NCBI GenBank assembly: GCA_001802645.1
Contig: MGZJ01000040.1
Coordinates: 1 to 64,000, forward strand
Direction: 5' to 3'
DNA: 64,000 bases
Source of the DNA: Geobacteraceae bacterium GWC2_53_11
Lineage (GTDB): Bacteria > Desulfobacterota > Desulfuromonadia > Geobacterales > Pseudopelobacteraceae
The position numbers were made by a program, and so were the translations under genes. How positions within the stretch are numbered: position 1 is the first letter of the stretch; each line of letters opens with the position of its first letter. The notes under the pieces were generated by a model. The model was not told where the DNA came from, ran no database searches, and saw only the letters and a list, made by a program, of their open reading frames with translations. Below are positions 50,484-64,000 of the stretch, piece after piece.

Positions 50484-50557
50484 GAGGCTCTGACCAGATT
50501 GACTCGTTTAATTTCTGATGTTATTGTGATGCTATCTGCGAAGTACTGGTGCCATCA

Positions 50558-51394
50558 ATGATTCGTCTTGTTTATTACGCTCTGATTCTCTGTTGCACAC
50601 ATCTGCCGACACACGCCGCTGCTTCGAGCACGTTACAGACCATTCCGGCGGGCTGTTTTCTCATGGGCAACACTTTTGAGGACGCCTACCATATAGAGAG
50701 ACCGGCGCATGAAGTATGTATCAGCAGTTTCTCCATGTCACCTTTTCCGGTAACACGGGGCGAGTTTGGCATGTTTGTGGCTGAAACTGGCTACCGTACC
50801 GATGCAGAGAAAGATGATGGCTGCAATATTTTTGACGGCAATAACTGGAAAAAGGATCCTGCTGCCACTTGGCGTTCCCCCGGTTTCCTTCAAGAGGCCG
50901 ACCATCCGGTGGTATGCGTAAGCTGGAATGACGCAGGTGCCTATGCCAATTGGTTGACCCGCAAAAACAACCGGATCTACCGTCTCCCGACAGAAGCTGA
51001 ATGGGAATACGCTGCCCGAAGCGGGGGAAAAAACGAGCGCTTTGCCGGAGGAGACGACATAGACAAGGTGGCGTGGTATGCCGCAAATTCGGAAAACCGC
51101 ACCCATTCAGTAGGTAAAAAGCAGGCAAACGGTCTGGGGTTGTATGACATGAGCGGCAACGTCTGGCAATGGTCCGGGGATTGGTACAACAATCGCTATT
51201 ACCGCATGAGTCCCCGCAATGACCCGTCAGGCCCGGCATCTGGCACAAAGCGCATCTTCAGGGGGGGAAGCTGGTTCTATGACCAGAGGGGCGCACGCAC
51301 CACGTACCGTGATTTTGCCACCCCTGGATTCAGCAGCAGTTATCTGGGGTTCCGGCTTGTTTCCACGATGCCGGATTCCAGCCCCCCTCAATGA
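50558..51394 (+). CDS. exported SUMF1/FGE-fold protein without the catalytic cysteines
   Basis: A 278-residue protein with a signal peptide (about 1-24). The full SUMF1 (formylglycine-generating-enzyme-like) fold follows: IPAGCFLMGN, PVVCVSWNDAGAYANWL, RLPTEAEWEYAARSGG, GLGLYDMSGNVWQW, RGGSWFYDQRG and LGFRLVS. The segment after RGGSW, where FGE has its Cys-x4-Cys copper site, has no cysteine, so formylglycine formation is unlikely. Start 50558 (ATG) is used; a GTG three codons earlier is possible. It heads a plus-strand run of four exported proteins. Confidence 0.88.
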   Translation: MIRLVYYALILCCTHLPTHAAASSTLQTIPAGCFLMGNTFEDAYHIERPAHEVCISSFSMSPFPVTRGEFGMFVAETGYRTDAEKDDGCNIFDGNNWKKDPAATWRSPGFLQEADHPVVCVSWNDAGAYANWLTRKNNRIYRLPTEAEWEYAARSGGKNERFAGGDDIDKVAWYAANSENRTHSVGKKQANGLGLYDMSGNVWQWSGDWYNNRYYRMSPRNDPSGPASGTKRIFRGGSWFYDQRGARTTYRDFATPGFSSSYLGFRLVSTMPDSSPPQ

Positions 51395-51460
51395 TATGAC
51401 ATCCGCTCCTCCTCTTCGGCAACAACCTCTATTCTACGTTAACAGTTCAAAGGGTGCCCC

Positions 51461-52123
51461 GTGACGCGAATTTGCATAGTGCTTCTCTCCATTACATTGT
51501 TTGTTCTAGATGCCAGAACCGCTTCCACAGCACCACCGGAATCAAATAATCCGTTCTATTCCTCCGTACCGTCAGCGTATATGGACGATCCACGCCGCAA
51601 CGAATGGCAACAACCGGACAAGGTTATTGACTACCTATTCATTAAACCGGGAGAAACCATAGCTGACATCGGTGCCGGCACCGGTTTTTTCTCAACCCGC
51701 TTCGCTCGAAAAGTCGGAAAAACGGGGCATGTCTATAGTGCCGATGTTGACGAGACCATGGTGCGGTTTATTGAGAAAAGAGCCCAAAAGGAAGGTCTGG
51801 GAAATATCCGGGCGATTCATGCACACCTGAATGATCCGTTGATACCTCGCTCATCTGCGGACGTTGTTTTTATCTGCGATACGTATCTCTTCATAGACAA
51901 CCGGGTACAGTATCTGGCACGATTACGTGACAGCCTCAAAATTAACGGACGGCTCGCGATCATTTCCTTCAACGCTTCTGCGGAAATCCCTGGCGCCCCC
52001 CCACAGCAGCGTATGATACCCAAACAGACTGTCATCACGGAAGCCATTGCTGCCGGCTATGCACCGGAGGCTGATTACCTTTTCTTACCCTTTCAGGATT
52101 TTCTGGTTTTCAGAAAGCGGTAA
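51461..52123 (+). CDS. SAM-type methyltransferase with an N-terminal signal sequence
   Basis: A 220-residue protein. The N-terminus (TRICIVLLSITLFVLDARTAST) looks like a signal peptide. The rest is a class I methyltransferase: DYLFIKPGETIADIGAGTGFFS (motif I), VYSADVDETMVRFI (motif II), SADVVFICDTYLFI. A methyltransferase in the periplasm would lack SAM, so either the segment is a membrane anchor facing inward, or the fold serves another purpose. Similar signal-bearing proteins are annotated in other delta-proteobacteria. The GTG start follows AAAGGG. It lies between the SUMF1-like and beta-sandwich genes. Confidence 0.82.
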   Translation: MTRICIVLLSITLFVLDARTASTAPPESNNPFYSSVPSAYMDDPRRNEWQQPDKVIDYLFIKPGETIADIGAGTGFFSTRFARKVGKTGHVYSADVDETMVRFIEKRAQKEGLGNIRAIHAHLNDPLIPRSSADVVFICDTYLFIDNRVQYLARLRDSLKINGRLAIISFNASAEIPGAPPQQRMIPKQTVITEAIAAGYAPEADYLFLPFQDFLVFRKR

Positions 52124-52149
52124 GGTAATAACACCTCAAGGAGATCACC

Positions 52150-53013
52150 ATGAAACGCTCTCTATTGGCACTCGTATTTTTTCTTGCAACCACTGCCCTG
52201 GCATATGGTGAAGCGTCCCCCTCTCAGATGCCAGCTTCACCTGAGACAAAAACTACCATTTCCGGCCAGGTAAAGGTCAAGGGCAAAACCCCGATGACCA
52301 ACGGAGTAGTACTCTTATTTAACAAAATGTGGGGTCCTCCCCCGCATCCTTATAAATACTGGCGTATCCCTGACATTATCTCTGAGACAGATAAATCCGG
52401 TAAATTTACTGTTGATGTCCAGGAAGGCACCTACTATTTGATGATCGCCCAGAAAAAGCCTGATGGTGAAATAGGTCCGCCAAAAGGGAACGAGTTTTTG
52501 TATTTTCATGGCAACGCCAAGGGAGATCCAAAAACTATCGTTGTTTCCGCCGGATCGAAAGTGAATCTTGGGGTGCTTTCCAAATCATTTATATGGTCGC
52601 CGAAGAAGGTGCCACACGACGGAGACCTCACTGCCGCTGAAGGAATAGTTGCCAACCTGGAAAATACACCTGTTGAGAATGCGGTCGTATTTGCGTATTT
52701 CAATAGTGACGCCGTCGGCAAACCGGCCTTTGTCTCTGACAGAACGGACAAAAACGGCAGGTTTCAGCTTCGCGTCTACGAAGGCGGCACCTATTATCTC
52801 AAAGTTAGAAGCATTATTGGTGGCGGCGCGCCCGAGACAGGTGAATATCAGAACGCAACGAAAGAGTTTGTTCCGGTCGAGGTATTGCTGACAAGCGGGC
52901 AACAACTGAAGGGGATCACACTTAAGGTTGATAAGTTTGTTGGAAAGGGCTCCACAGGTACAGTAAAACCTGACAGAATTTGGAAAAACACTAAGAAACT
53001 GCAAGGCAAATAA
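52150..53013 (+). CDS. exported carboxypeptidase-regulatory-like protein, paralogue of the 47.3-kb gene
   Basis: A 287-residue protein with a signal peptide ending near residue 22 (ALAYGEA). Two beta-sandwich modules follow: TISGQVKVKGKTPMTNGVVL (about 38-130) and AEGIVANLENTPVENAVVFA (about 165-265). Each is followed by a SDKSGKFTVDV / TDKNGRFQLRV strand and a TYYLMIAQK / TYYLKVRS strand. The plan is that of the protein at 47278-47973. It ends in a Lys-rich tail. It follows the methyltransferase by 26 bp with a clear AAGGAG. Probable role: surface or periplasmic scaffold. Confidence 0.8.
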   Translation: MKRSLLALVFFLATTALAYGEASPSQMPASPETKTTISGQVKVKGKTPMTNGVVLLFNKMWGPPPHPYKYWRIPDIISETDKSGKFTVDVQEGTYYLMIAQKKPDGEIGPPKGNEFLYFHGNAKGDPKTIVVSAGSKVNLGVLSKSFIWSPKKVPHDGDLTAAEGIVANLENTPVENAVVFAYFNSDAVGKPAFVSDRTDKNGRFQLRVYEGGTYYLKVRSIIGGGAPETGEYQNATKEFVPVEVLLTSGQQLKGITLKVDKFVGKGSTGTVKPDRIWKNTKKLQGK

Positions 53014-53036
53014 ACACCCTTCACTTACTCACCACA

Positions 53037-54305
53037 ATGCCGATACCACATTTACAGCACAAGCGTAAGTACTTCGCCCGGACACGGGGAGTACTTACGC
53101 TTGTGCTGGCCTCCTTTCTCTGCTGTCCGCACAGCTCAACAGCTGCCTCCGAAGAAGATGTACCGGGAAAAGCCCTTGGGTACCCAACGGGGCCACCGCT
53201 GGCCGAGTCAGGCGAACAGTTCCGCGTTGGTACTTTCAGCCGAATGGATCAACTCTTTCCAAGCAACAAAGTCCGCAAAGGCGTTTCGACACTCCCTTTT
53301 ACAAAGGCTAAGCAAGAGCCTCACATTACGTATGAAATAAATGGAAGCGTTTTAACTGTTGACGACTACCTGCGGCGTAACCGGGTATCCGGGCTTCTTG
53401 TCATAAAAGATGATTGTATACTTGTCGAACGTTACCGGTATGATCGCAAGGATACCGACAAATTTGTATCCAATTCTATTGCGAAGTCGATCACCAGCCT
53501 TGCGGTCGGGCTTGCCCTTCAGGATGGCGCCATCTCATCCCTGGACGATAAAGCGGCCAAATATGTTCCAGAACTGAAAGGATCAGCTTACGGCCAGACA
53601 ACAATCCGGAACCTCCTGAGAATGTCATCAGGCGTCCCGTTCAGCGAGGACTACAGCGGCAATGACGATCTGACCTCTTTCGTTCGGACACTTGCCACCA
53701 CCGGAGCCGTTGAAACCCTGAAACAGTTCCGTGTCAGGACTGTTCCGGAAGGGACAAAATTCAGCTACGCGTCGAGCGAGGCGCTGACTCTCGGCCTGGT
53801 AGTACGTGCAAGCACGGGAAAAGCCCTCTCCGATTATATTTCGGAAAGACTCTGGCAGCCTATGGGGGCCGAGTCTGATGCAACATGGGTAATTGACTCG
53901 AAGGGGGTTGAATGGTCATTTGCAAAATTCAATGCGGTGTTGCGGGATTACGGGAGACTGGGACGCCTGCTGGCGAATGACGGGGTATTGCATGGGCGAA
54001 AAATCCTGCCGCGTGACTACCTAATAGAAGCGACAGACTGGCATAAACATCCTGAAGCATTCAGGCCAGGACATGCAACCGCTGATCTTGGCTATGGATA
54101 TCAGTTCTGGATATTTCCGGGAGAGAAGAGACGCTTTGCACTTGTGGGAATCTTCGGGCAGCTGATCTATGTCGACCCGGCGCTGAAACTTGTCATCGTA
54201 CAAACGGCCGTCGCGAAAAAACCTTCCAGCGCGGAGATGTGGCGCGAATTCGGAGCCCTTATACAAGGGATCAAAACTATCTACGAAAAGGCATCATGCA
54301 GCTGA
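53037..54305 (+). CDS. exported serine hydrolase, class C beta-lactamase/DD-peptidase family
   Basis: A 422-residue protein. A signal sequence lies at about 17-38 (VLTLVLASFLCC..; a lipobox-like FLCC is possible). The hydrolase domain has the SxxK nucleophile as SNSIAKSITSLAVGLAL, then MSSGVPFSEDYSG, the YxN-like YAS (FSYASSEAL) and a late GYGYQFWIFPG. These place it with EstB/AmpC-like proteins; the substrate (peptide, ester or lactam) is not known. The first 25 codons contain a perfect 18-bp inverted repeat. No clear ribosome site precedes the ATG at 53037; a GTG at 53103 is a possible start. Confidence 0.82.
   Translation: MPIPHLQHKRKYFARTRGVLTLVLASFLCCPHSSTAASEEDVPGKALGYPTGPPLAESGEQFRVGTFSRMDQLFPSNKVRKGVSTLPFTKAKQEPHITYEINGSVLTVDDYLRRNRVSGLLVIKDDCILVERYRYDRKDTDKFVSNSIAKSITSLAVGLALQDGAISSLDDKAAKYVPELKGSAYGQTTIRNLLRMSSGVPFSEDYSGNDDLTSFVRTLATTGAVETLKQFRVRTVPEGTKFSYASSEALTLGLVVRASTGKALSDYISERLWQPMGAESDATWVIDSKGVEWSFAKFNAVLRDYGRLGRLLANDGVLHGRKILPRDYLIEATDWHKHPEAFRPGHATADLGYGYQFWIFPGEKRRFALVGIFGQLIYVDPALKLVIVQTAVAKKPSSAEMWREFGALIQGIKTIYEKASCS
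53056..53107. repeat. 52-bp hairpin: perfect 18-bp inverted repeat in the start of a coding region
   Basis: The arms agcacaagcgtaagtact (53056-53073) and agtacttacgcttgtgct (53090-53107) are fully complementary. Inside the 16-base spacer CCCG (53077-53080) pairs with CGGG (53085-53088). The mRNA would form a very stable hairpin covering codons 7-24 of the hydrolase gene, which could control translation. It might instead be a small inserted palindromic element. Confidence 0.9.
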
Positions 54306-54340
54306 CCCGGTTCTAGACTGCCCGCGTTTTCCTCAGTACG

Positions 54341-55165
54341 TCACGGACCGGGATACATGATCCGGAAACCAAGATCAAGCGCCTGATCATCAGGATAACC
54401 GCTGCTGCGCCACGTTGCCTGCGACTGCCTGGCACCATAATGCCAGCTGCCGCCGCGACGGACCCGTGTTGAACTTGTTGCAGGCCCTGAAGGATCCTGC
54501 TGGCGCATGGCTGAATATTCCCCACTCCAGTCCTGCACCCACTCCCAAACATTGCCGCTCATGTCATATATGCCCAGCCCGTTAGGTTGTTTCTGCCCCA
54601 CCAGATGGGTTTTCCCCGCTAGAACCCGTTCATACCAGGCAACGTCATCAGCAGTATTGCTGCCGCAGTAGGTCTCATCTTTCCCGCCACTTCTGCAGGC
54701 ATATTCCCATTCAGCCTCAGTCGGAAGATAATATTTTTTACCGGTCTGGCTGCTGAGCGCCCTGACAAACTCCTGGGCATCATTCCAGCCAACCTGCTCG
54801 ACGGGGCAATCATCGCCGCAGCTGTTAAAACGTGACGGGTTATTCCCCATGACCCTACGCCATTGGCCTTGGGTAACTTCATACTTTCCGATAAAAAAGT
54901 CGGAGACACAGACTTCATGTACCGGTTTTTCATCGCTGGCGCCTTTTTCAGACCCCATTCGGAAACATCCCCCCGGCACGAAAACAAACTCCATGCCGGT
55001 CTGAGCGTTTTTTGAAGTTGCTCGCACCGGTGGCGCATCGGTTTTTCCAGAGCCATTATCCCCTTTGCTTTCAAAGGGTAGAGGTCCTGCCCAGGCAAAA
55101 GTGTTCCACAAAAAGATTGCAGCAAGAAGCCGCATCAGCATGGTCATATTTCCTCTGGCACTCAT
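54341..55165 (-). CDS. exported SUMF1/FGE-fold protein without the catalytic cysteines
   Basis: A 274-residue protein with a signal peptide (about 1-26). The SUMF1 domain (about 55-272) has VPGGCFRMGSEKGA, EVCVSDFFIGKYEVTQGQW, CPVEQVGWNDAQEFV, YLPTEAEWEYACRSGG, LGIYDMSGNVWEWVQDW and RGGSWHYGARQ. The FGE copper-binding cysteines after RGGSW are missing, so it is probably a non-catalytic lectin-like or binding protein. The start overlaps the upstream SUMF1-like gene by 4 bp, and both lie behind a cytochrome gene. It converges on the hydrolase gene. Confidence 0.88.
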   Translation of the reverse strand: MSARGNMTMLMRLLAAIFLWNTFAWAGPLPFESKGDNGSGKTDAPPVRATSKNAQTGMEFVFVPGGCFRMGSEKGASDEKPVHEVCVSDFFIGKYEVTQGQWRRVMGNNPSRFNSCGDDCPVEQVGWNDAQEFVRALSSQTGKKYYLPTEAEWEYACRSGGKDETYCGSNTADDVAWYERVLAGKTHLVGQKQPNGLGIYDMSGNVWEWVQDWSGEYSAMRQQDPSGPATSSTRVRRGGSWHYGARQSQATWRSSGYPDDQALDLGFRIMYPGP

Positions 55166-56043
55166 TGGTTTTGTACCGGCGACACGAGGCGGAAGCCCAG
55201 AAAAAGGATGCGGAATTCGGGATCAAATCCGTTGCGATCTGAGACCCGGACGCATTCGGAAGCATTTCCCCACCCCCCACCACGGGGGATACGAAGCTTG
55301 CCGCTGGCCGGACCGCGCGGGTTGGATTTGGGACTATTGAAATAATATTCCGCATCATACCAGTCGCCCGTCCATTCCCAGGCGTTACCCATCATATCGT
55401 GTAACCCAAACGCGTTCGGCTTGAAGCTCCCTACCGGTGCAGCCACTTTATAGCCATCATTGCAGTTGGTTGTTGTCCAGGCCGGCCACTGGCTTTTCGC
55501 TGTCAGATCCGCGCCGTTTGCGGAACGGCACGGCCCATCCGGGTCGTTATCCCAGAAGTTCCTTTCTCCCGTTCCTCCCCGTGCAGCATATTCCCACTCC
55601 GCCTCGGTCGGGAGCCGGTATGTGCGGCCTGACCGTTTGGAAAGCCACTTTGAATATGCCACGGCATCATTCCACGATACATTTCCCGTCGGCTGGTTAT
55701 CATCATTCAGTGTGTTTCCTTCATAGGCTCCACTGGAATGTTCCGGTTTAAACATGCGATACTGGGCGTTGGTTACCTCATATTTTCCTATGAAGAAACC
55801 ATCCAGACACACCTCGTGCGCAGGCTTTTCATCACCCTGCCCGTCTCCGTAGGTATCGCCCATCAAAAAGCACCCTCCCGGCACCGGCATAAACGCCATA
55901 CCGGTAGATGGGTCGGCAAATGCAGCACCTGAGGCCTTACCCGTTACAGACACCGCACTTTTATCTGTTCCGGCTGCCATTGCAGAATGATCAGCAGTAA
56001 CAATCAGTGCAGCAATGACGGCAATAAAAATCCGGCTTACCAC
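55162..56043 (-). CDS. exported SUMF1/FGE-fold protein without a proper catalytic cysteine pair
   Basis: A 293-residue protein with a signal peptide (about 1-24). The SUMF1 domain includes MPVPGGCFLMGDTYGDG, EVCLDGFFIGKYEVTNAQY, NVSWNDAVAYSKWLSKR, YRLPTEAEWEYAARGGTG, GLHDMMGNAWEWTGDWYD and RGGGWGNASECVRVSDRNG. There is one Cys after the RGGGW but not in the two positions used by FGE, so formylglycine synthesis is unlikely. A GTG at 56043 with AAGGA eight bases upstream is the chosen start; it overlaps the cytochrome stop by 7 bp. It is probably part of the cytochrome operon. Confidence 0.87.
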   Translation of the reverse strand: MVSRIFIAVIAALIVTADHSAMAAGTDKSAVSVTGKASGAAFADPSTGMAFMPVPGGCFLMGDTYGDGQGDEKPAHEVCLDGFFIGKYEVTNAQYRMFKPEHSSGAYEGNTLNDDNQPTGNVSWNDAVAYSKWLSKRSGRTYRLPTEAEWEYAARGGTGERNFWDNDPDGPCRSANGADLTAKSQWPAWTTTNCNDGYKVAAPVGSFKPNAFGLHDMMGNAWEWTGDWYDAEYYFNSPKSNPRGPASGKLRIPRGGGWGNASECVRVSDRNGFDPEFRILFLGFRLVSPVQNQ

Positions 56044-58721
56044 GGTGTTAATTCCTTCCACTGGCCGTTTTGTTTCTTGTCAGCAGATGCTGCGGATTTA
56101 CCGAACTGCCTGACATGACAACCGACAACCTTGTTCTTCGACGAATCCGAACTTTTTACTGCAGCAGGCACTCCACTACGATCATCACTGTTCTTGTAGG
56201 GAAGCCAGGCTAGGCCGCTGTTCTCCCGCAACCCGGATGGACCTTCCTGAAAGCAATTAGTCTGCATGAGTCTCGGGAGTCCGGAGTTGTGAGATTGGTG
56301 ACACTTGGAACAGGGGAAGGAGTGTTCCTTGTTTTCTCCCCAACCCTTAACGGAGCGGTGAATAAGTGCGGTTTTGGAATTGCCGGCAAAATTTTCCTTC
56401 TTGTGGCACTGCATGCAGAGGCCGCCAAAGGTATCGTCATTTTCCCTGATGCGGTGATCCCCGCCAAAGGTATTGCGGTCAACACTGTATTTCATGCCCT
56501 GAATCGGTTCGCGCGGTGCACCGCCCGACATTTTTCCGAAATTCGAATTATCTTCACGATTGGTGACATTAAAGTCGCTGGTACGAGGCGAAGGGCTGCC
56601 GCCTTTGCCAAAGTTGGCGTTACCATCGCGGTTCGTCGTGTTGTAGTCAGCGCTGCGCGGGGCACTGCTCTCACCTTTGCCGAAATTAGAGTTAGCGCTA
56701 CGGTTCGTGGCGTTGTAATCGCCGGAACGGGGGGCACTGCTGTCACCTTTGCCGAAGTTCGCGTTGCCGTCGCGGTTCGTTGTGTTGTAGTCAGCGCTGC
56801 GCGGGGCACTGCTGTCACCCTTGCCGAAGTTCGCATTGCCGTCGCGGTTGGTTGTGTTGTAATCGGCGCTGCGCGGGGCGCTGCTCTCGCCTTTGCCGAA
56901 GTTGGAATTGGCGCTACGGTTCGTGGCGTTGTAGTCGCCGGAACGGGGAGCACTGCTGTCACCCTTGCCGAAGTTCGCATTGCCGTCGCGGTTGGTTGTG
57001 TTGTAATCGGCGCTGCGCGGGGCGCTGCTCTCGCCTTTGCCGAAATTAGAATTAGCGCTACGGTTCGTGGCGTTGTAGTTTCCGGAACGAGGGGCACTGC
57101 TGTCACCCTTGCCGAAATTCGCATTGCCGTCGCGGTTGGTCGTGTTGTAGTCAGCGCTGCGCGGGGCACTGCTCTCACCTTTGCCGAAATTAGAATTAGC
57201 GCTACGGTTCGTGGCGTTGTAGTTGCCGGAACGGGGGGCACTGCTGTCACCCTTGCCGAAGTTCGCGTTGCCGTCACGGTTGGTCGTGTTGTAATCAGCA
57301 CTGCGTGGGGCGCTGCTCACGCCTTTGCCGAAATTAGAATTAGCGCTCCGGTTCGTGGCATTGTAGTCGCCGGAACGGGGGGCACTGCTGTCGCCCTTGC
57401 CGAAGTTCGCATTGCCGTCGCGATTGGTGGCATTGTAATCAGTTTTACGGATAGGAGTGGACGCCTTGGCCTTTACACCTGCAGGCGGACCGTCTTCCTT
57501 GTAAGGAGAGGTAAGCCAGGTCCCTTTGAGGAGAGGGACTGCATACGGCATCCTATCGCCCAATGTCCGGCTGACCCCGTGAGGATCGTGACAGGGGGTA
57601 CACAAGCCGTTGATTTTACCGTGAGCTGAATAATTGAGAAAACTACCCGACTTCAAATGGCTGCTGGCAACATCTGAACGGCTCTGTCGGTTGGCAAATC
57701 GGGACGTAGAGCCCTTTTCACCGGAAGCAAAACGCAGGGTATCCTTATATCCAATGATCGGCTGACGGGCACCAAATGTGGAGCTGAAGCCCCAAGGGGT
57801 TTTGCCGGCTTTTGCCGTTTCATGACAATCAAAACAGAGCCCGGCACCCGCATTGTACGGGTTCTTGCTCTTCGCATCAGAGTTGGCTGACGGTTTATAT
57901 GAGGTATGGTACCCCCCCTTCCCTGAAACAGTATCCTTAAGAATCCCTCCGCTAAAGCTTCCGCCGTAGGTTTGATAGCTGGAAGTGACGCCGGAAACGG
58001 TTGAACCATGAGAATTATGGCAGTCAAAACATTCTACGTTTTTAGCTTTGGCTCCGCCCCTGCTGCTAGTAACGTCGCCGTCATAACCGCTGACTGCGCT
58101 CCATCCCCCCTGGTTTGCAGCTGAATTCCCATGAGCCGAGAATGCCTTGGTAATCCGGCTTTTCTTATTGGTTGCAGCGGTAGAGTACTTGCCCCATGGA
58201 GTAACACCTGACTGGGAATAGCGGGACGCGACGCTCTGAAGATCCCACGCATACTGCCGCGGCGTATTGCCGTCACCAGCAAACGGCTTGACATCATTAG
58301 TGCCGTCGTTATGACAGGAGAGACAATGAGCGCTGACCTTTGCTACTTCAGCGCGTTCAGACGGAGTGCCGATTGCTGCACTTCTGAATGGTATTGCCGT
58401 GACATTCTTCTTGTATTCCGTCGGACGCACGCCATCCGCCCAGACGACAAGATGAACCGTTGAACCGGGTTTACCAGCCGACTTGGCGTCGTGGTACCGT
58501 TTGTTTATCTGACCGTCCGGAGTGCTCTCCCAGTGGCAGGCATAGCAATGCCGGCCTGTGACACCGGTTCCCTGGATGTGATGGGAATTGCCCTGCAGAT
58601 GTTTCAGAACTCCGGTATGACAATCTACACATTCTTTCGCAGTTGCGTTATAGGCCGACAGAACAATGACACAGAGCATCACCATCAGCATGATTTTATT
58701 CCGGAGTCCAATTATGCGCAC
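56037..58721 (-). CDS. exported octaheme c-type cytochrome with repeat insert
   Basis: An 894-residue protein with a signal peptide (about 1-28). Eight CxxCH motifs are seen: CVDCH, CYACH, CLSCH, CFDCH, CFDCH, CTPCH before the repeat and CMQCH, CSKCH after it. Several free His (HHIQG) could be distal ligands. Between hemes 6 and 7, residues 428-739 are 13 tandem 24-residue units. Without them it aligns over its length with the cytochrome at 60.9-62.8 kb, so the insert is an expansion. The end (VVGCHVRQFGK) is also shared. It is likely an extracellular or outer-surface electron carrier. GTG start at 58721 follows GGGAGG. Confidence 0.92.
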   Translation of the reverse strand: MRIIGLRNKIMLMVMLCVIVLSAYNATAKECVDCHTGVLKHLQGNSHHIQGTGVTGRHCYACHWESTPDGQINKRYHDAKSAGKPGSTVHLVVWADGVRPTEYKKNVTAIPFRSAAIGTPSERAEVAKVSAHCLSCHNDGTNDVKPFAGDGNTPRQYAWDLQSVASRYSQSGVTPWGKYSTAATNKKSRITKAFSAHGNSAANQGGWSAVSGYDGDVTSSRGGAKAKNVECFDCHNSHGSTVSGVTSSYQTYGGSFSGGILKDTVSGKGGYHTSYKPSANSDAKSKNPYNAGAGLCFDCHETAKAGKTPWGFSSTFGARQPIIGYKDTLRFASGEKGSTSRFANRQSRSDVASSHLKSGSFLNYSAHGKINGLCTPCHDPHGVSRTLGDRMPYAVPLLKGTWLTSPYKEDGPPAGVKAKASTPIRKTDYNATNRDGNANFGKGDSSAPRSGDYNATNRSANSNFGKGVSSAPRSADYNTTNRDGNANFGKGDSSAPRSGNYNATNRSANSNFGKGESSAPRSADYNTTNRDGNANFGKGDSSAPRSGNYNATNRSANSNFGKGESSAPRSADYNTTNRDGNANFGKGDSSAPRSGDYNATNRSANSNFGKGESSAPRSADYNTTNRDGNANFGKGDSSAPRSADYNTTNRDGNANFGKGDSSAPRSGDYNATNRSANSNFGKGESSAPRSADYNTTNRDGNANFGKGGSPSPRTSDFNVTNREDNSNFGKMSGGAPREPIQGMKYSVDRNTFGGDHRIRENDDTFGGLCMQCHKKENFAGNSKTALIHRSVKGWGENKEHSFPCSKCHQSHNSGLPRLMQTNCFQEGPSGLRENSGLAWLPYKNSDDRSGVPAAVKSSDSSKNKVVGCHVRQFGKSAASADKKQNGQWKELTPW
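56505..57440. repeat. 72-bp minisatellite, 13 units, within the octaheme cytochrome gene
   Basis: Twelve full 72-bp units (57440 down to 56577) and a diverged thirteenth. Each encodes a 24-residue unit of the form DYNxTNRxxNxNFGKGxSSAPRSx. Two unit types mostly alternate (TTNRDGNANFGKGDSS and ATNRSANSNFGKGESS), giving a 144-bp higher-order period. There is one doubling of the first type at units 9 and 10. The paralogous cytochrome has one unit at the same place. The encoded segment is polar, Gly/Ser/Asn-rich and basic, and probably unstructured. Confidence 0.97.
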
Positions 58722-59012
58722 ACGACCTCCCTAAATTTGCAAATAACACACTGTTTTTTTTGAAACTTTATGCATCTGATGTGCCATATAAAAATAGCTT
58801 GGAATTATGTATAGTTGTGATCCGGGAGAGTAAAATTCAGGCAGGAACAGCATAAACATGGCAGCAGCAATGCCCTAATTATGGGCATATATGCTTAATA
58901 AATATACACTTATTACATTTTCTCCGATCCGCACAAGCTGGACAATGGTGCCGGAAAGATGATATACAGTACGTGTAACGTACTCGTTAAGTCGTGGCGG
59001 AGGTCGGAAGGA
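58722..59012. promoter_or_regulatory. divergent regulatory region between cytochrome and DUF1566 genes
   Basis: A 291-bp AT-rich gap with no coding sequence seen. It holds a perfect inverted repeat AGTACGT-gta-ACGTACT at 58968-58984, 29 bp before the DUF1566 start, and a partial palindrome tgccctaattatgggca at 58871-58887. Divergent promoters must lie here, but no pair of boxes stood out. Confidence 0.5.
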
Positions 59013-59741
59013 ATGATGAAAAAGATATGCCTGCTGCTCTGTCTTGTCACATTGGCAGCAGCGGCTGAAAGCGGTGCTGAAGTTTCAGCAAAACAGCTTC
59101 AAGACGTAACCGGTGTTACGACATGGAGCAGTACCAACCGGAACCGTATTTCCACCGCTCAACCGGATTTCCCCCGTCAGAATGCGGATTTCTCCAAGCC
59201 CCTGTCTTTTACGAAACTGGACCATTCCGGAAAAGATCTCCCTGACAGCGCCGATTCCTGGGCGTGTGTACGGGACAACCTGTCCGGCCTCGTCTGGGAA
59301 GCCAAAACGTCCGATGGCAGTCTCCACGACAAATCCTATACCTACACCTGGTACAGTTCAGATGAGAACAGTAATGGCGGCAGGATGGGTGTGGAGGGCG
59401 AGCCGGACAATACAACCTGTGGGACCCCGGCGGTTGTCGCAGCCGGCTGCGATACCGAAAAATTCGTTACCGCCGTCAACAAGGCCGGCTGGTGCGGCCA
59501 GAAGGACTGGCGTATGCCAACCGTCAACGAGCTGTATTCGATCGTCAATTACGGGGCATCGCTACCGGCGATATCAGAGAAATACTTCCCCGACCTGATC
59601 ATGCCGGCCGGCTTCTGGACGGTTTCGCCGTATGCGGCAAACCCGGCCTTTGCCTGGATTGTCATTTTTGACGACGGCTATGTCGGTTCCTGCGTCAAAA
59701 GCTGGGCGTATTACCTTCGTCTCGTACGGGGAGGAAACTGA
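59013..59741 (+). CDS. exported DUF1566 (Lcl C-terminal-like) protein
   Basis: A 242-residue protein with a signal peptide (about 1-22; MMKKICLLLCLVTLAAAAES). The DUF1566 domain includes DNLSGLVWEAKTSDGSLH, WCGQKDWRMPTVNELYSIVNYG and the C-terminal FWTVSPYAANPAFAWIVIF .. YLRLVRGG. This fold is related to C-type lectin-like domains. The start at 59013 has GGAGG nine bases upstream; the next ATG is adjacent. It is the first of three DUF1566 genes, divergent from the cytochrome. Function unknown; likely a surface-binding protein. Confidence 0.87.
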   Translation: MMKKICLLLCLVTLAAAAESGAEVSAKQLQDVTGVTTWSSTNRNRISTAQPDFPRQNADFSKPLSFTKLDHSGKDLPDSADSWACVRDNLSGLVWEAKTSDGSLHDKSYTYTWYSSDENSNGGRMGVEGEPDNTTCGTPAVVAAGCDTEKFVTAVNKAGWCGQKDWRMPTVNELYSIVNYGASLPAISEKYFPDLIMPAGFWTVSPYAANPAFAWIVIFDDGYVGSCVKSWAYYLRLVRGGN

Positions 59742-59773
59742 TTGTGGTATTACAACGGGAAGGAATAATTGAA

Positions 59774-60316
59774 ATGAAATCTACTGCTCTTGCATGCCTG
59801 CTGTTTTTGTCGCTGTTCCTCTGTACATCACCTGCATCGGCGACCCAGACCTGCCGAAGCGACCTTTCCCCTTCGACCCCAACCGGACGTTTCATAAGCG
59901 GCAGCGACGGGACGGTTACCGATACCGTGACAAATCTGACCTGGAAGCGCTGCAGTGAGGGGCTGTCCGGCCCATCATGCGAGACCGGCAAGGCCATTAC
60001 CTATACGTGGCCCGATGCTCTCAGAATTGCCGCTTCCAGCACATTTGCCGGCAAAAAAGACTGGCGTGTACCGACAATTCAGGAACTTGATACGATAATA
60101 GAATATCACTGCACCATGCCGGCAATCAACGCCGCCGTTTTCCCCGCAACCCCCACATCAAACTTCTGGTCGGTTTCACCATTTGCCGGGTACCCCGACG
60201 GCAGCTGGAATATTAACTTTAACGATGGTGCCCATGAAACCTGCAACAGAAACTGGAACCTGTATCTGCGTCTCGTTCGCGGAAAAATGCTGAATCAGGA
60301 AGGAGCCGGCAGATGA
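59774..60316 (+). CDS. exported DUF1566 protein
   Basis: A 180-residue protein with a signal peptide ending near residue 24 (SPASA/TQ). A compact DUF1566 domain follows: SDGTVTDTVTNLTWKRCSEG, DWRVPTIQELDTIIEYHC, SNFWSVSPFAGYPDGSWNI and a final LYLRLVRGK. It is closely related to the next gene and less so to the first one. GGAAGG precedes the start at 59774. It overlaps the third DUF1566 gene by 4 bp. Confidence 0.88.
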   Translation: MKSTALACLLFLSLFLCTSPASATQTCRSDLSPSTPTGRFISGSDGTVTDTVTNLTWKRCSEGLSGPSCETGKAITYTWPDALRIAASSTFAGKKDWRVPTIQELDTIIEYHCTMPAINAAVFPATPTSNFWSVSPFAGYPDGSWNINFNDGAHETCNRNWNLYLRLVRGKMLNQEGAGR

Positions 60317-60840
60317 AATTTGCAGATATATTTATCACACTTTCCATAACGGCCATGCTGTTGCCCGTGCCATCGGAAGCGGTACAGACACAGACCTGCC
60401 ACTCATACTGGCCCAAGGCATCGACCCCCATAAGCCGTTTCACGAACAACGCCGACGGGACTGTTTCCGACAGTATTACCGGACTCACCTGGAAACGCTG
60501 TAGTGAGGGATTGAGCGGCGCGCTCTGCGAGTCCGGGACACCGGCAACCTACACGTGGCAGGAAGCACTGAAGAGCGGAGCTGGCAGCACCTTTGCCGGC
60601 AAGAATGACTGGAGGCTGCCGAACATCAAGGAACTTGCCACCATTGTGGAGCGCCAGTGCACCATGCCGGCCATCAATGAAATCATCTTTCCGGCAACTC
60701 CGACCATGTCCTTCTGGTCAAGCACTCCGTACGATGCAAATCCGGCTTTTGCCTGGAACATCTATTTCCCTTACGGGATCAGCGACGGCAATAACAAGGA
60801 GTATAAATTTTTCGTACGGCTTGTACGCGGAGGAAAATAA
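60313..60840 (+). CDS. exported DUF1566 protein
   Basis: A 175-residue protein, signal peptide about 1-23. The DUF1566 domain has NADGTVSDSITGLTWKRCSE, DWRLPNIKELATIVERQC, MSFWSSTPYDANPAFAWNIY and a final FFVRLVRGGK. AGGAG lies before the ATG, which overlaps the previous stop (ATGA). It is a tandem-duplicate relative of the gene before it, diverged mainly in the segment before the last FVRLVRG. It is followed by a terminator hairpin. Confidence 0.88.
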   Translation: MKFADIFITLSITAMLLPVPSEAVQTQTCHSYWPKASTPISRFTNNADGTVSDSITGLTWKRCSEGLSGALCESGTPATYTWQEALKSGAGSTFAGKNDWRLPNIKELATIVERQCTMPAINEIIFPATPTMSFWSSTPYDANPAFAWNIYFPYGISDGNNKEYKFFVRLVRGGK

Positions 60841-60868
60841 ACCGGCTCTTGCCCGATATAAAAACGAC

Positions 60869-60903
60869 AATGCCGCGAAACCTTTACCCGGTTTCACGGC
60901 ATT
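60869..60903. terminator. terminator between converging DUF1566 and cytochrome genes
   Basis: 14-bp arms aatgccgcgaaacc and ggtttcacggcatt pair with one wobble around a 7-nt loop. A T run (TCGTTTTTATA) follows on the minus strand, so it best serves the cytochrome transcript. It may stop both. Confidence 0.8.
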
Positions 60904-60934
60904 GCTGCTTCCAGAACTATATCTACTGTTCAGC

Positions 60935-62809
60935 TTACCACTTCATTTTTTCTTTCCACTGGCCGTTATCGCCGCCCGGCATTGCCGCACTGCTGCCGCC
61001 GAACTGCTTCACATGACACCCGACCATTTCACCTTTACCGCTCTTTTTATTCTTTGACGTGGAATCGGACTGCTTGCTTTCTCTGGCAGGGGGCGGACCT
61101 TCACCTTTCCGGTCCGGCGTCCAGGAGATGCCGCTGTTTTCACGGAGACCGGCAGGACCGGAGACAAAACAGTTGGTCTGCATCAGGCGAGGCAACCCTG
61201 AATTGTGCGGCTGATGGCATTTCGAGCAGGGGAATGAGTGTTCCTTGTTGTTGCCCCACCCTTTAACCGCACGATGAATCTTGTCTGATTTCGCACTGCC
61301 GCCGCTCTTTTCTTTGGCATGGCATTTCAGACAGAGTCCACCAAAGGTATCCGCATCCTCAGTGATCCGCCCCTTTTCCCCGAACGTGTTTTTGTCGATG
61401 AAATACTTCATTCCGGCCATCGGTTCGCGCGGAGTACCAGCCCCTCCAATCCCGAAATTAGCATTTGCCTCCCGGTTGGTAAGACTGAAGTCCCCCTTTT
61501 CCCACGCCTCTCCCCGGTTGGCACCGGCATCACGCTTGGCAAAGGCGCCTTTGCCGGCCAGAGTGGCAGGCGGTCCATCCTCGCGATACGGCGACGTCAG
61601 CCAGGCGCCCTTAAGAAGCGGCACGGCATAGGGCATTTTATCCCCCAGCGTCCTGCTCACCCCGTGAGGATCATGACATGGCGTACAGAGACCGTTGATG
61701 CGTCCTTCTGCAGAATAGTTAAGGAACGTCCCTGCCTTCAGGTGGCTGCTGACGACATCGGTACGGCTCTCCCGGTTCGCATAGCGCGAGGTGGAACCTT
61801 TGTCGCCGGGTCCAAAATGCGGGGAATCCTTGTATCCCATGACCGGCTTTGAAGCTCCGAAGGTAGAAGCGTATCCCCATGGCTTTGCCCCTGCCTGTGC
61901 CGTTTCGTGGCAGTCAAAACAGAGTCCGGCTCCTGCATTATACGGGTTCTTGCTCCCCTTGTCCGGGTTGGCTGAAGGACGATAGGTCATCCGATACCCC
62001 GCCTTGCCCGCAGTTGTTTCTTTCAGGATCGCGCCGTTATAAGTTCCGTCAAAGGTTTTGTAGCTTGAGGTTACGCCCGGAACGGAGGAGCCGTGTGAGT
62101 TATGGCAGTCAAAACATTCAACATTCTTTGCCCCGGGTCCTCCCCAGCGAATAGGAATGGCTTCATCGTAGCCGGTGACGGGGCTCCAGCCTCCCCGTGT
62201 TGCCGCGGCATTACCATGGCCGGAAAGCGCCTTGGTTACCCTCATTTTGCCGTTACTCTTCGCCGTCGAATACTTGCCCCACGTGGTAACGCCCTTCTCG
62301 CTGTAGCGCGAAGCAACGCTCTGCCCATCCCAGGCGTAGACCAGAGGCGTATTGCCGTCTCCGGCAAACGGCTGGATCGCATTGCTGCCATCGCTGTGAC
62401 AGCCGAGACAGTGGCGGGTCACCTGTGCCACCTGAGTCCGTTCCGACACCTGGCCAATGGCAGAGGGGCGGAACGCAACAGCACTAATTCCATCCTTGTA
62501 TGCTGCAGGGCGGGCACCATCTTTCCAGATCACCAGATCAACTGCTCCGTGTGAACGCCGGGAAGATTTTTTTGCCGTCCCGCTATGGAATTTCGGATTA
62601 ATCTGTCCGTCCGGAGTCGCCTCCCAGTGGCAGGCAAAACAGTGCTTTCCAGAAATATCCACTCCCTGGACATGGTGAGAAGTGCCGTTGAACTGCTTCA
62701 GCACCTCTCCATGGCACTCCACACACTCTTGTGCCAATGCAGCAGCCGTTGGAACAGCAAGCAGGACGAGCAGACTACTTAAACACCATTGTTTCGTAAA
62801 CAAACCCAT
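60935..62809 (-). CDS. exported octaheme c-type cytochrome, paralogue of the repeat-bearing one
   Basis: A 624-residue protein with a signal peptide (about 1-26). Eight CxxCH motifs (CVECH, CFACH, CLGCH, CFDCH, CFDCH, CTPCH, CLKCH, CSKCH) occur in the same order and context as in the 894-residue cytochrome. Between hemes 6 and 7 it has one unit (FSLTNREANANFGIGGAGTP) where the other has thirteen. The C-terminal MVGCHVKQFGG is also shared. It follows the sulfatase gene by 39 bp and is probably co-transcribed with it. Likely secreted or outer-membrane-associated electron carrier; partner unknown. Confidence 0.93.
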   Translation of the reverse strand: MGLFTKQWCLSSLLVLLAVPTAAALAQECVECHGEVLKQFNGTSHHVQGVDISGKHCFACHWEATPDGQINPKFHSGTAKKSSRRSHGAVDLVIWKDGARPAAYKDGISAVAFRPSAIGQVSERTQVAQVTRHCLGCHSDGSNAIQPFAGDGNTPLVYAWDGQSVASRYSEKGVTTWGKYSTAKSNGKMRVTKALSGHGNAAATRGGWSPVTGYDEAIPIRWGGPGAKNVECFDCHNSHGSSVPGVTSSYKTFDGTYNGAILKETTAGKAGYRMTYRPSANPDKGSKNPYNAGAGLCFDCHETAQAGAKPWGYASTFGASKPVMGYKDSPHFGPGDKGSTSRYANRESRTDVVSSHLKAGTFLNYSAEGRINGLCTPCHDPHGVSRTLGDKMPYAVPLLKGAWLTSPYREDGPPATLAGKGAFAKRDAGANRGEAWEKGDFSLTNREANANFGIGGAGTPREPMAGMKYFIDKNTFGEKGRITEDADTFGGLCLKCHAKEKSGGSAKSDKIHRAVKGWGNNKEHSFPCSKCHQPHNSGLPRLMQTNCFVSGPAGLRENSGISWTPDRKGEGPPPARESKQSDSTSKNKKSGKGEMVGCHVKQFGGSSAAMPGGDNGQWKEKMKW

Positions 62810-62848
62810 ATTAACTCCTGCTTTTTTTATCCTATCTGTCTTTCTTGA

Positions 62849-64000
62849 TTAGGGATACGGGATGATATACCGTTTTTCCCCCGCTCCGTAGCTGGCCTTT
62901 TTCTTGTCAACAGCAGCATCCCACTCCATAAGCTTTGCCCTCAGGGTTTCGACAACCTTCGGATTCTGAGCCGCCACATTGCGGCGTTCATGGGGATCAG
63001 TCACGATATCGTACAGCTCGATGTCGTTATACTGGAGTGCACTCCCCGTAATATAGCCATACCAGGAAACTTTCTCCAGCAACCGGGGCTCTTTGCGCAG
63101 GATCATTTTCCACTGTTTGGTTCTAATAGCGATGTCTCCCGGCGGATACGAACCGGCAGGAAATGCAGAGCGGAGCATGGCACCGTACTCCTTGACCGGC
63201 TTCTTTTCCGACTCGGGGTAATTGGTCTGTGAATTTTTAAACTCCAGATACCATCTGCTCAGGGTATGCTCCCACCAGGGGATCCTGTCGATATAGGCAT
63301 ACTCGGTTCCTGTCGCACCTGGCTCACCCTTGATAAGCGGCAGCAGACTGCTCCCCTGCTGGCTGTGGTCACGAGGGACACCGAGATAATCAAGCACGGT
63401 CGGCATGATATCAATCCCCTGCACCTGATCGGCAATCCGCTTCCCTCCCTGCTGGCCGTCCGGCAGACGAACGAGAAGGGCACTTTTTACCGCTGACTCG
63501 GAGAGATCGTAATGAACGTAGGTATCCCGCTCGCCAAGATCCTCACCATGGATTGAATGGATAATCAGGATCGTGTTTTTGGTCAGGCCGTTCTTTTCAA
63601 GCGTATCAACCAGCTGCCCGATGAAATTGTCGGTGTAGCGGATGGCGGCATCGTAGCGCGACACGATATACGAATAGTCGGTCGGCGTCAGTTTGTACAC
63701 GGGCTTGAAGCCGAGATAGTACTCGTCCTTGTAAAGCCTCATCAGAACATCGTAGGTGGTGTCGTCGGACGCCCCCTCCTCCGCCTTGATGGAATGGAAT
63801 TTTTCCCAGAACGGTGTATATCCCGGCGGGTCGTAGACAACACGGTCCTCCCGGGGAACACCTGCCGCATAGGGTACATGAATCACACCGCTGGCAATCC
63901 ACATGAAGAACTTTTTGTCCTTGTTCCTCTTGATCCAGTCAAGCGATTCAACCGGAGCAACCCTGAGTGAAGAGCCGAGCCCTTTTCTGGTCCTGCCGAA
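62849..64000 (-). CDS. sulfatase-family protein (N-terminus outside window)
   Basis: The frame is open from the right edge to the stop at 62849, giving 383 residues. A Met at 63904 is internal, since upstream codons continue the family pattern (..KDKKFFMWIASGVIHVPY). Alkaline-phosphatase-superfamily sulfatase features are SRYDAAIRYTDNFIGQLVDTL, LIIHSIHGEDLGERDTYVHYDLSESAVK, VQGIDIMPTVLDYLGV and the C-terminal KWKMILR-like and LYDIVTDPHERRNVA. The catalytic C/S-x-P-x-R motif lies outside the window, so it cannot be said whether it is a Cys- or Ser-type enzyme or a phosphoethanolamine transferase-like relative. It is upstream of the second cytochrome. Confidence 0.85.
   Translation of the reverse strand, partial: FGRTRKGLGSSLRVAPVESLDWIKRNKDKKFFMWIASGVIHVPYAAGVPREDRVVYDPPGYTPFWEKFHSIKAEEGASDDTTYDVLMRLYKDEYYLGFKPVYKLTPTDYSYIVSRYDAAIRYTDNFIGQLVDTLEKNGLTKNTILIIHSIHGEDLGERDTYVHYDLSESAVKSALLVRLPDGQQGGKRIADQVQGIDIMPTVLDYLGVPRDHSQQGSSLLPLIKGEPGATGTEYAYIDRIPWWEHTLSRWYLEFKNSQTNYPESEKKPVKEYGAMLRSAFPAGSYPPGDIAIRTKQWKMILRKEPRLLEKVSWYGYITGSALQYNDIELYDIVTDPHERRNVAAQNPKVVETLRAKLMEWDAAVDKKKASYGAGEKRYIIPYP

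What the first reader, a model, noticed from the sequence alone, without database searches (positions are those of the whole stretch)
56505..57440. Octaheme cytochrome with a 13-unit 24-residue repeat between hemes 6 and 7
Seen directly: 12 exact-length 72-bp units plus a diverged one, in two alternating types, inside a cytochrome whose neighbour paralogue (60935-62809) has a single unit at the same point. A single ancestral motif seems to have been amplified to a Gly/Asn/Ser-rich, basic spacer of about 310 residues that splits the heme array 6+2. A flexible spacer could let two heme domains reach across the cell surface or tune aggregation. Copy number is likely to vary among strains.
Basis: partly seen in the sequence, partly recalled or inferred. 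Interest (0 to 1): 0.75.

Follow-up and report, generated by a model that had tools for sequence, protein, structure and literature searches.

The report
Amplified 24-residue repeat in octaheme cytochrome
A bacterium related to iron-respiring Geobacter carries an eight-heme electron-transfer protein in which one short, strongly conserved motif has been copied 13 times into a long, probably floppy arm between two groups of hemes; relatives carry different copy numbers, a natural series for asking what such arms do.

Summary
CDS 56037-58721(-) encodes an 894-aa cytochrome with a signal peptide and eight CXXCH motifs; 13 gap-free 72-bp units (56505-57440) lie between hemes 6 and 7. The neighbour (60935-62809) has one unit at the same point. 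An assembly artefact is unlikely: the longest exact internal repeat is 95 bp. Seven independent Geobacterales genomes carry an array. Three are assembled through (4, 11 and 13 units); four break their draft contigs inside it.

A plain flexible spacer is only half the story. AlphaFold gives no structure for the tract (pLDDT about 30). But the unit is a constrained motif: N3, R7 and N12 are invariant in 60 units. Same-type units differ almost only synonymously (pS 0.35, pN 0.02). The single unit in six paralogues is more conserved (0.87) than their heme core (0.64). Arrays homogenise within species. The octaheme core is obligate and the 6-7 loop is its most length-variable site, so the array may be an extruded loop rather than a split into two domains.

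Best reading: a disordered multivalent arm built from a short binding or self-association motif on an octaheme core. It is a new variant of repeat-bearing cytochromes (PgcA is closest). Function is untested.

The parts
56037..58721 (-). Array-bearing octaheme c-type cytochrome (REP), 894 aa, signal peptide, no lipobox
   Evidence: ORF and eight CXXCH; Pfam Paired_CXXCH_1 and Cytochrome_C7
57588..58631 (-). Hemes 1-6 (CXXCH at aa 31, 59, 133, 231, 296, 374)
   Evidence: spacings conserved in 56 homologues
56505..57440 (-). 13 tandem 24-aa units (A/B dimer repeat, aa 428-739), predicted disordered
56505..56576 (-). Terminal unit (DFNVTNREDNSNFGKMSGGAPREP), conserved across orthologues G000, G014, G019 and G027
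56298..56417 (-). Hemes 7 and 8 (CXXCH at aa 769 and 804)
60935..62809 (-). Paralogous octaheme cytochrome with a single unit (PAR), 624 aa
61421..61492 (-). Single 24-aa unit of the paralogue, between hemes 6 and 7
58959..60840 (+). Three Lcl_C-type (DUF1566) proteins between the two cytochromes; found beside them in all six genomes that have PAR. Pfam was run on the first two; the third (60313-60840) is assigned by its similarity to them
54341..56061 (-). Two FGE-sulfatase-fold proteins directly downstream of REP, conserved neighbours

Best explanation
A signal-peptide-bearing (presumably secreted) octaheme c-type cytochrome of a Geobacterales bacterium, in which a 24-residue motif of the variable heme 6-7 loop, [DN][YF]Nxx-NR-xxxx-NF-[GA][KR]-G, has been tandemly amplified as an A/B dimer. 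The array forms a long disordered arm (contour about 110 nm, coil end-to-end roughly 12-16 nm). Each unit acts as a weak binding or self-association site (regularly spaced Tyr/Phe and Arg in a Gly/Ser/Asn background), so the arm gives reach and avidity: it holds the octaheme core near its partner (other cytochromes, matrix polymer or mineral) while letting it move. Shown: the array, conservation of and selection on the unit, concerted turnover, a conserved gene neighbourhood. Predicted: disorder and export. Inferred: binding or self-association, extracellular location, and a role in extracellular electron transfer.
For: N3, R7 and N12 invariant and F13 59/60 in 60 units from seven genomes of two families. 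pS about 0.35 against pN about 0.02 within unit types. The single unit in six paralogues has pairwise identity 0.87, against 0.61 for the preceding linker and 0.64 for the heme core. No structure predicted for aa 415-747. Disordered side of the charge-hydropathy boundary. 26 aromatics spaced 11/13, 26 Arg, only three I/L/V/M. Array retained with unit number and unit types turning over. Same gene neighbourhood across genomes.
Against: No partner, location or phenotype is known. Disorder rests on AlphaFold with few aligned rows in the array. Conserved sequence could reflect protease resistance or export needs rather than binding; PgcA's (PT)x linkers are also conserved, yet showed no mineral-binding role (PMC11520253). 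Sticker-like composition is an analogy, not a measurement.
Confidence: 0.42

Rival explanations
1. Pure entropic tether: the array is a PgcA-like flexible linker that lets a hexaheme and a diheme domain move independently, so electrons pass by tethered diffusion. Length matters and exact sequence does not.
For: Array lies between hemes 6 and 7; predicted disordered; each side has at least as many invariant non-motif His as hemes; PgcA precedent (PMC11520253).
Against: Unit sequence is selected and kept as a single copy in paralogues; the eight hemes are an obligate module and the 6-7 interval already varies 66-120 aa without an array, so the two parts may be one lobe with a loop.
Confidence: 0.3
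2. Folded repeat: the units stack into a regular structure (a beta-solenoid or cross-beta fibre) that acts as a rigid rod or amyloid-like scaffold.
For: Strict 24-aa period and invariant residues; Asn/Gly-rich units with regularly placed aromatics are compatible with cross-beta assembly (general knowledge).
Against: No secondary structure predicted and pLDDT about 30 throughout; only three I/L/V/M in 312 residues; 23-residue units tolerated in three other genomes.
Confidence: 0.12
3. By-product: replication slippage and recombination expanded a tolerant loop, and the array has little or no function.
For: The 6-7 loop is the most length-variable interval of the module; arrays turn over within species.
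Against: Almost only synonymous divergence between same-type units; arrays kept in frame in seven independent genomes of two families with an invariant core.
Confidence: 0.08

Closest known systems
PgcA of Geobacter sulfurreducens (PMC5732950, PMC11520253)
   Same: c-type cytochrome of a related organism whose heme-binding parts are separated by low-complexity tandem repeats; flexible linker model with tethered diffusion.
   Different: PgcA has three monoheme domains, (PT)x repeats and a lipid-attachment site. Here there are eight hemes in one conserved module, a 24-aa Asn/Arg/aromatic unit, no PTx or PAx runs and no lipobox.
Non-PTx tandem repeats in other putative secreted Geobacter cytochromes, noted in PMC5732950
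   Same: Tandem repeats in extracellular cytochromes of related strains were already predicted there.
   Different: Their unit sequences are in a figure not held here, so identity with this unit could not be checked. No selection or copy-number analysis of this unit was found in the library.
Tandem-repeat-bearing multiheme cytochromes of Borg elements (PMC9879509)
   Same: Disordered amino-acid tandem repeats in multiheme cytochromes, fast repeat turnover, selection on the amino-acid sequence.
   Different: Archaeal extrachromosomal elements; T/P-rich units, lying at different sites in proteins described as distinct in sequence and architecture.
Filament-forming Geobacter cytochromes OmcS, OmcE and OmcZ
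   Same: Multiheme cytochromes of Geobacter; OmcZ also has eight hemes (general knowledge).
   Different: The family profile matches no PDB chain at E <= 1 and the paralogue model has no Foldseek match. Filament formation untested.

Membership tests
PgcA-like tethered-heme cytochromes | CXXCH-bearing parts separated by a low-complexity tandem repeat | tested here: met
PgcA-like tethered-heme cytochromes | (PT)x or (PA)x repeat type | tested here: not met
   No PT/PA runs in the protein
PgcA-like tethered-heme cytochromes | Monoheme domains | tested here: not met
   Six plus two CXXCH
PgcA-like tethered-heme cytochromes | Lipoprotein attachment site | tested here: not met
   No lipobox in the first 40 aa
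PgcA-like tethered-heme cytochromes | Independently moving heme domains (SAXS, NMR) | not testable with these tools
   Needs purified protein; models too weak
Octaheme module of Geobacterales and Nitrospirota (unnamed) | Eight CXXCH with conserved spacings and invariant extra His | tested here: met
Filament-forming cytochromes (OmcS, OmcE, OmcZ) | Sequence or fold similarity to the solved filaments | tested here: inconclusive
   No PDB sequence match and no Foldseek match, but the model is of low confidence
Prion-like sticker-and-spacer domains | Disorder with regularly spaced aromatics and Arg | tested here: met
   (composition and prediction only)
Prion-like sticker-and-spacer domains | Measured condensation or self-association | not testable with these tools
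   Needs purified protein

The most novel reading that the evidence does not exclude
The array is a bacterial prion-like 'sticker' domain inserted in an exported multiheme cytochrome: it lets the cytochrome condense with itself or with the biofilm matrix into a redox-active gel, with unit number tuning the material, so that electrons hop between mobile octaheme cores instead of along a rigid filament.
Probability: 0.15. Interest if true: 0.82.

Novelty: new variant of a known kind. Interest (0 to 1): 0.5.

Why it matters
Rigid heme wires and flexibly tethered hemes are two pictures of how metal-reducing bacteria move electrons outside the cell. Here nature provides a graded series (0, 1, 4, 11 and 13 units) on one conserved eight-heme core. 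One cultured strain, Geobacter sp. OR-1, holds an array cytochrome and a single-unit paralogue whose hemes 1-6 regions are 97.7% identical over 1118 nt. That makes 'what does the linker's length or sequence do?' directly testable. It also suggests that such linkers can be selected for their sequence and not only for flexibility.

Tried and rejected
2) PDB sequence searches with the paralogue, the array and the family profile: nothing meaningful; the array hit to 'DMIP19' at E 0.027 is judged composition-driven. 3) Foldseek of the paralogue model: nothing; the models are too weak to decide loop versus split. 4) Is the unit used elsewhere? In 141 genomes of the order it was found only in these cytochromes and their paralogues; one 2073-aa ORF in G104 matches at 19% identity, E 2e-5, judged low-complexity and not followed up. 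5) Assembly artefact: rejected for the window. 6) Neutral slippage: disfavoured by pN/pS. 7) G014 and G016 as two witnesses: rejected, the contigs are 100% identical and counted once. 8) A clean clade of array proteins: not recovered. The tree of the six-heme region is poorly resolved and OR-1 REP groups with OR-1 PAR, best explained by gene conversion, so a single origin of the array is not proven. The single-copy state as ancestor is parsimony, not shown. 9) Copy number within a species: no strain-level collection to search. 10) Literature: no paper in the library joins DUF1566 and extracellular-electron cytochromes; one review holds the terms multiheme, cytochrome and condensate, and was not read.

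Full report
OBSERVATION. The CDS at 56037-58721(-) encodes 894 aa with eight CXXCH motifs (aa 31, 59, 133, 231, 296, 374, 769, 804). Between motifs 6 and 7 lie 13 units of exactly 24 aa / 72 bp at 56505-57440, also seen by TRF as a 144-bp dimer with score 1096. Types A and B alternate, with one A-A break at units 9-10; the last unit is diverged. The paralogue 60935-62809(-) has eight CXXCH and a single unit at 61421-61492. The longest exact repeat inside the array is 95 bp and no 99-mer repeats, so collapse or expansion by the assembler is unlikely.

WHAT CARRIES IT. Both proteins match only generic multiheme families (Paired_CXXCH_1, Cytochrome_C7, Cytochrom_c3_2). Homologues of the octaheme module are common in Geobacterales and occur in Nitrospirota MAGs, many inside larger open frames of 1200-3000 aa. 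In 56 aligned homologues the heme-to-heme spacings are nearly fixed (28-41, 63-97, 90-105, 59-66, 76-96, then 66-395, then 32-64), and non-motif His at 47, 48, 197, 238, 355, 381, 788, 800 and 811 are invariant. The 6-7 interval is the most length-variable; a few relatives instead have about 160 aa between hemes 5 and 6. Of 99 heme-6 signatures, 82 are followed by the diheme part. By my reading of the printed list, the other 17 are contig edges, frameshifts, masked stretches, near-misses of the search pattern that visibly contain the diheme part, or (one case, L030) printed too short to tell. So the array sits in a tolerant loop of an apparently obligate octaheme module. Whether it separates two lobes or bulges from one cannot be told: AlphaFold gives pTM 0.50 for the array protein and 0.57 for the paralogue, with a weak C-terminal part, and Foldseek finds nothing.

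DISTRIBUTION. Seven independent genomes carry an array orthologue. The window's genome has 13 units, G014 has 4 (G016 holds an identical contig and is not counted), and G038 has 11 (the gene runs off the contig after heme 8). G019, G027, G080 and Geobacter sp. OR-1 break their contigs inside the array, leaving about 4-6 whole units visible on the longer side. In 141 genomes of the order the repeat was found in no other kind of protein. Copy number therefore varies between species; variation within a species was not testable.

SELECTION ON THE UNIT. Over 60 units, N3, R7 and N12 are invariant, N6 and F13 are 59/60, position 2 is Y/F in 57 and position 15 is K/R in all. Within type A and type B of the window array, pS is about 0.35 and pN about 0.02, and 23 of 28 variable sites are at third codon positions. 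The single unit in six paralogues (G000, G014, G038, OR-1, G080, G082) has mean pairwise identity 0.87, against 0.61 for the 22 residues before it and 0.64 for the heme core before heme 6. A passive spacer would not need a conserved single copy; a short functional motif would. Internal units are closest to units of their own array in 41 of 53 cases (10 ties), whereas the terminal units of G000, G014, G019 and G027 match one another best. This is concerted evolution of the array with a more slowly changing last unit; in G038, OR-1 and G080 the last unit is less distinctive.

OR-1. In this 454-sequenced isolate (PMC4319506) the array cytochrome and its paralogue are 97.7% identical over 1118 nt of the hemes 1-6 region and diverge about where the linker starts. 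Frameshifts in both genes are probably 454 homopolymer errors (inference). Recent gene conversion (inference) has homogenised the heme region while the linker and C-terminal parts stayed distinct. This would also help explain why the six-heme tree does not recover the array proteins as a clade.

BIOPHYSICS. The array is 17% N, 15% S and 13% G, with net charge +8 over 312 residues and pI 9.6, and lies on the disordered side of the charge-hydropathy boundary. AlphaFold pLDDT is about 30 with no secondary structure throughout the array (caution: only a few rows of the alignment cover it). There are 26 aromatics spaced 11/13, 26 Arg and three I/L/V/M. This resembles sticker-and-spacer prion-like domains (field example PMC9748015, abstract only); it is an analogy of composition and spacing. 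Contour length is about 112 nm and expected coil end-to-end roughly 12-16 nm.

NEIGHBOURHOOD. A gene set is conserved around the pair, with rearrangements: three FGE-sulfatase-fold proteins, a methyltransferase, a CarboxypepD_reg protein, an Lcl_C/DUF1566 trio and a sulfatase-like protein. The Lcl_C trio lies beside the cytochromes in all six genomes with the single-unit paralogue. G019 and G027, which have only the array cytochrome, show only distant Lcl_C relatives (at most 40% identity). The sulfatase-like proteins of G014 lack a C/S-x-P-[SA]-R motif, so sulfatase activation is not the likely link. No other multiheme gene lies in the window. The set looks like an island of exported proteins whose function is unknown.

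COMPARISON. The closest known protein is PgcA, whose heme domains are separated by (PT)x repeats and move independently over up to 180 A (PMC11520253). Tandem repeats without PTx were already noted in other secreted Geobacter cytochromes (PMC5732950), and Borg multiheme cytochromes carry disordered amino-acid tandem repeats (PMC9879509). So repeats in extracellular cytochromes are a known kind. Different here are the octaheme module, the 24-aa aromatic/Arg unit, the single-copy paralogue and the evidence that the unit sequence is selected. PgcA membership fails on repeat type, domain type and lipobox; working like PgcA remains possible.

VERDICT. Observation confirmed, interpretation partly supported. 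Most likely a disordered multivalent arm; a pure tether is the main rival. New variant of a known kind.

Noticed in passing
50549-64000: Conserved gene set around the cytochrome pair: three FGE-sulfatase-fold proteins, a methyltransferase, a CarboxypepD_reg protein, three Lcl_C proteins and a sulfatase-like protein, recurring with rearrangements in the other array genomes.
   Followed up: partly
58959-60840: The Lcl_C trio tracks the single-unit paralogue (present beside it in 6 of 6 genomes that have it) and is missing, except for distant relatives, in two genomes that have only the array cytochrome.
   Followed up: partly
54341-56061 and 50549-51394: By inspection the FGE-like proteins seem to lack the paired catalytic cysteines of formylglycine-generating enzymes, and the sulfatase-like neighbours in G014 lack C/S-x-P-[SA]-R; they may be exported C-type-lectin-fold proteins instead.
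   Followed up: no
56289-57629 (+) and 56492-57301 (-): The array is also open in an antisense frame (446 aa) and in a second minus-strand frame (269 aa), because a 72-bp unit keeps every frame in register; no sign that these are genes.
   Followed up: no
L052 2674-4583 and L059 10001-11334 (Geobacter sp. OR-1): Apparent recent gene conversion between the two cytochrome genes: 97.7% nt identity over the hemes 1-6 region, ending about where the linker begins.
   Followed up: yes
L111, L112, L122: Some homologues have about 160 aa between hemes 5 and 6 instead of about 78, a second site that tolerates insertion in the octaheme module.
   Followed up: no
L130, L131 (G014 contig C69, G016 contig C167): Two MAGs listed as different species share a 100% identical 4.5-kb contig, suggesting cross-binning of one organism's DNA.
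   Followed up: partly
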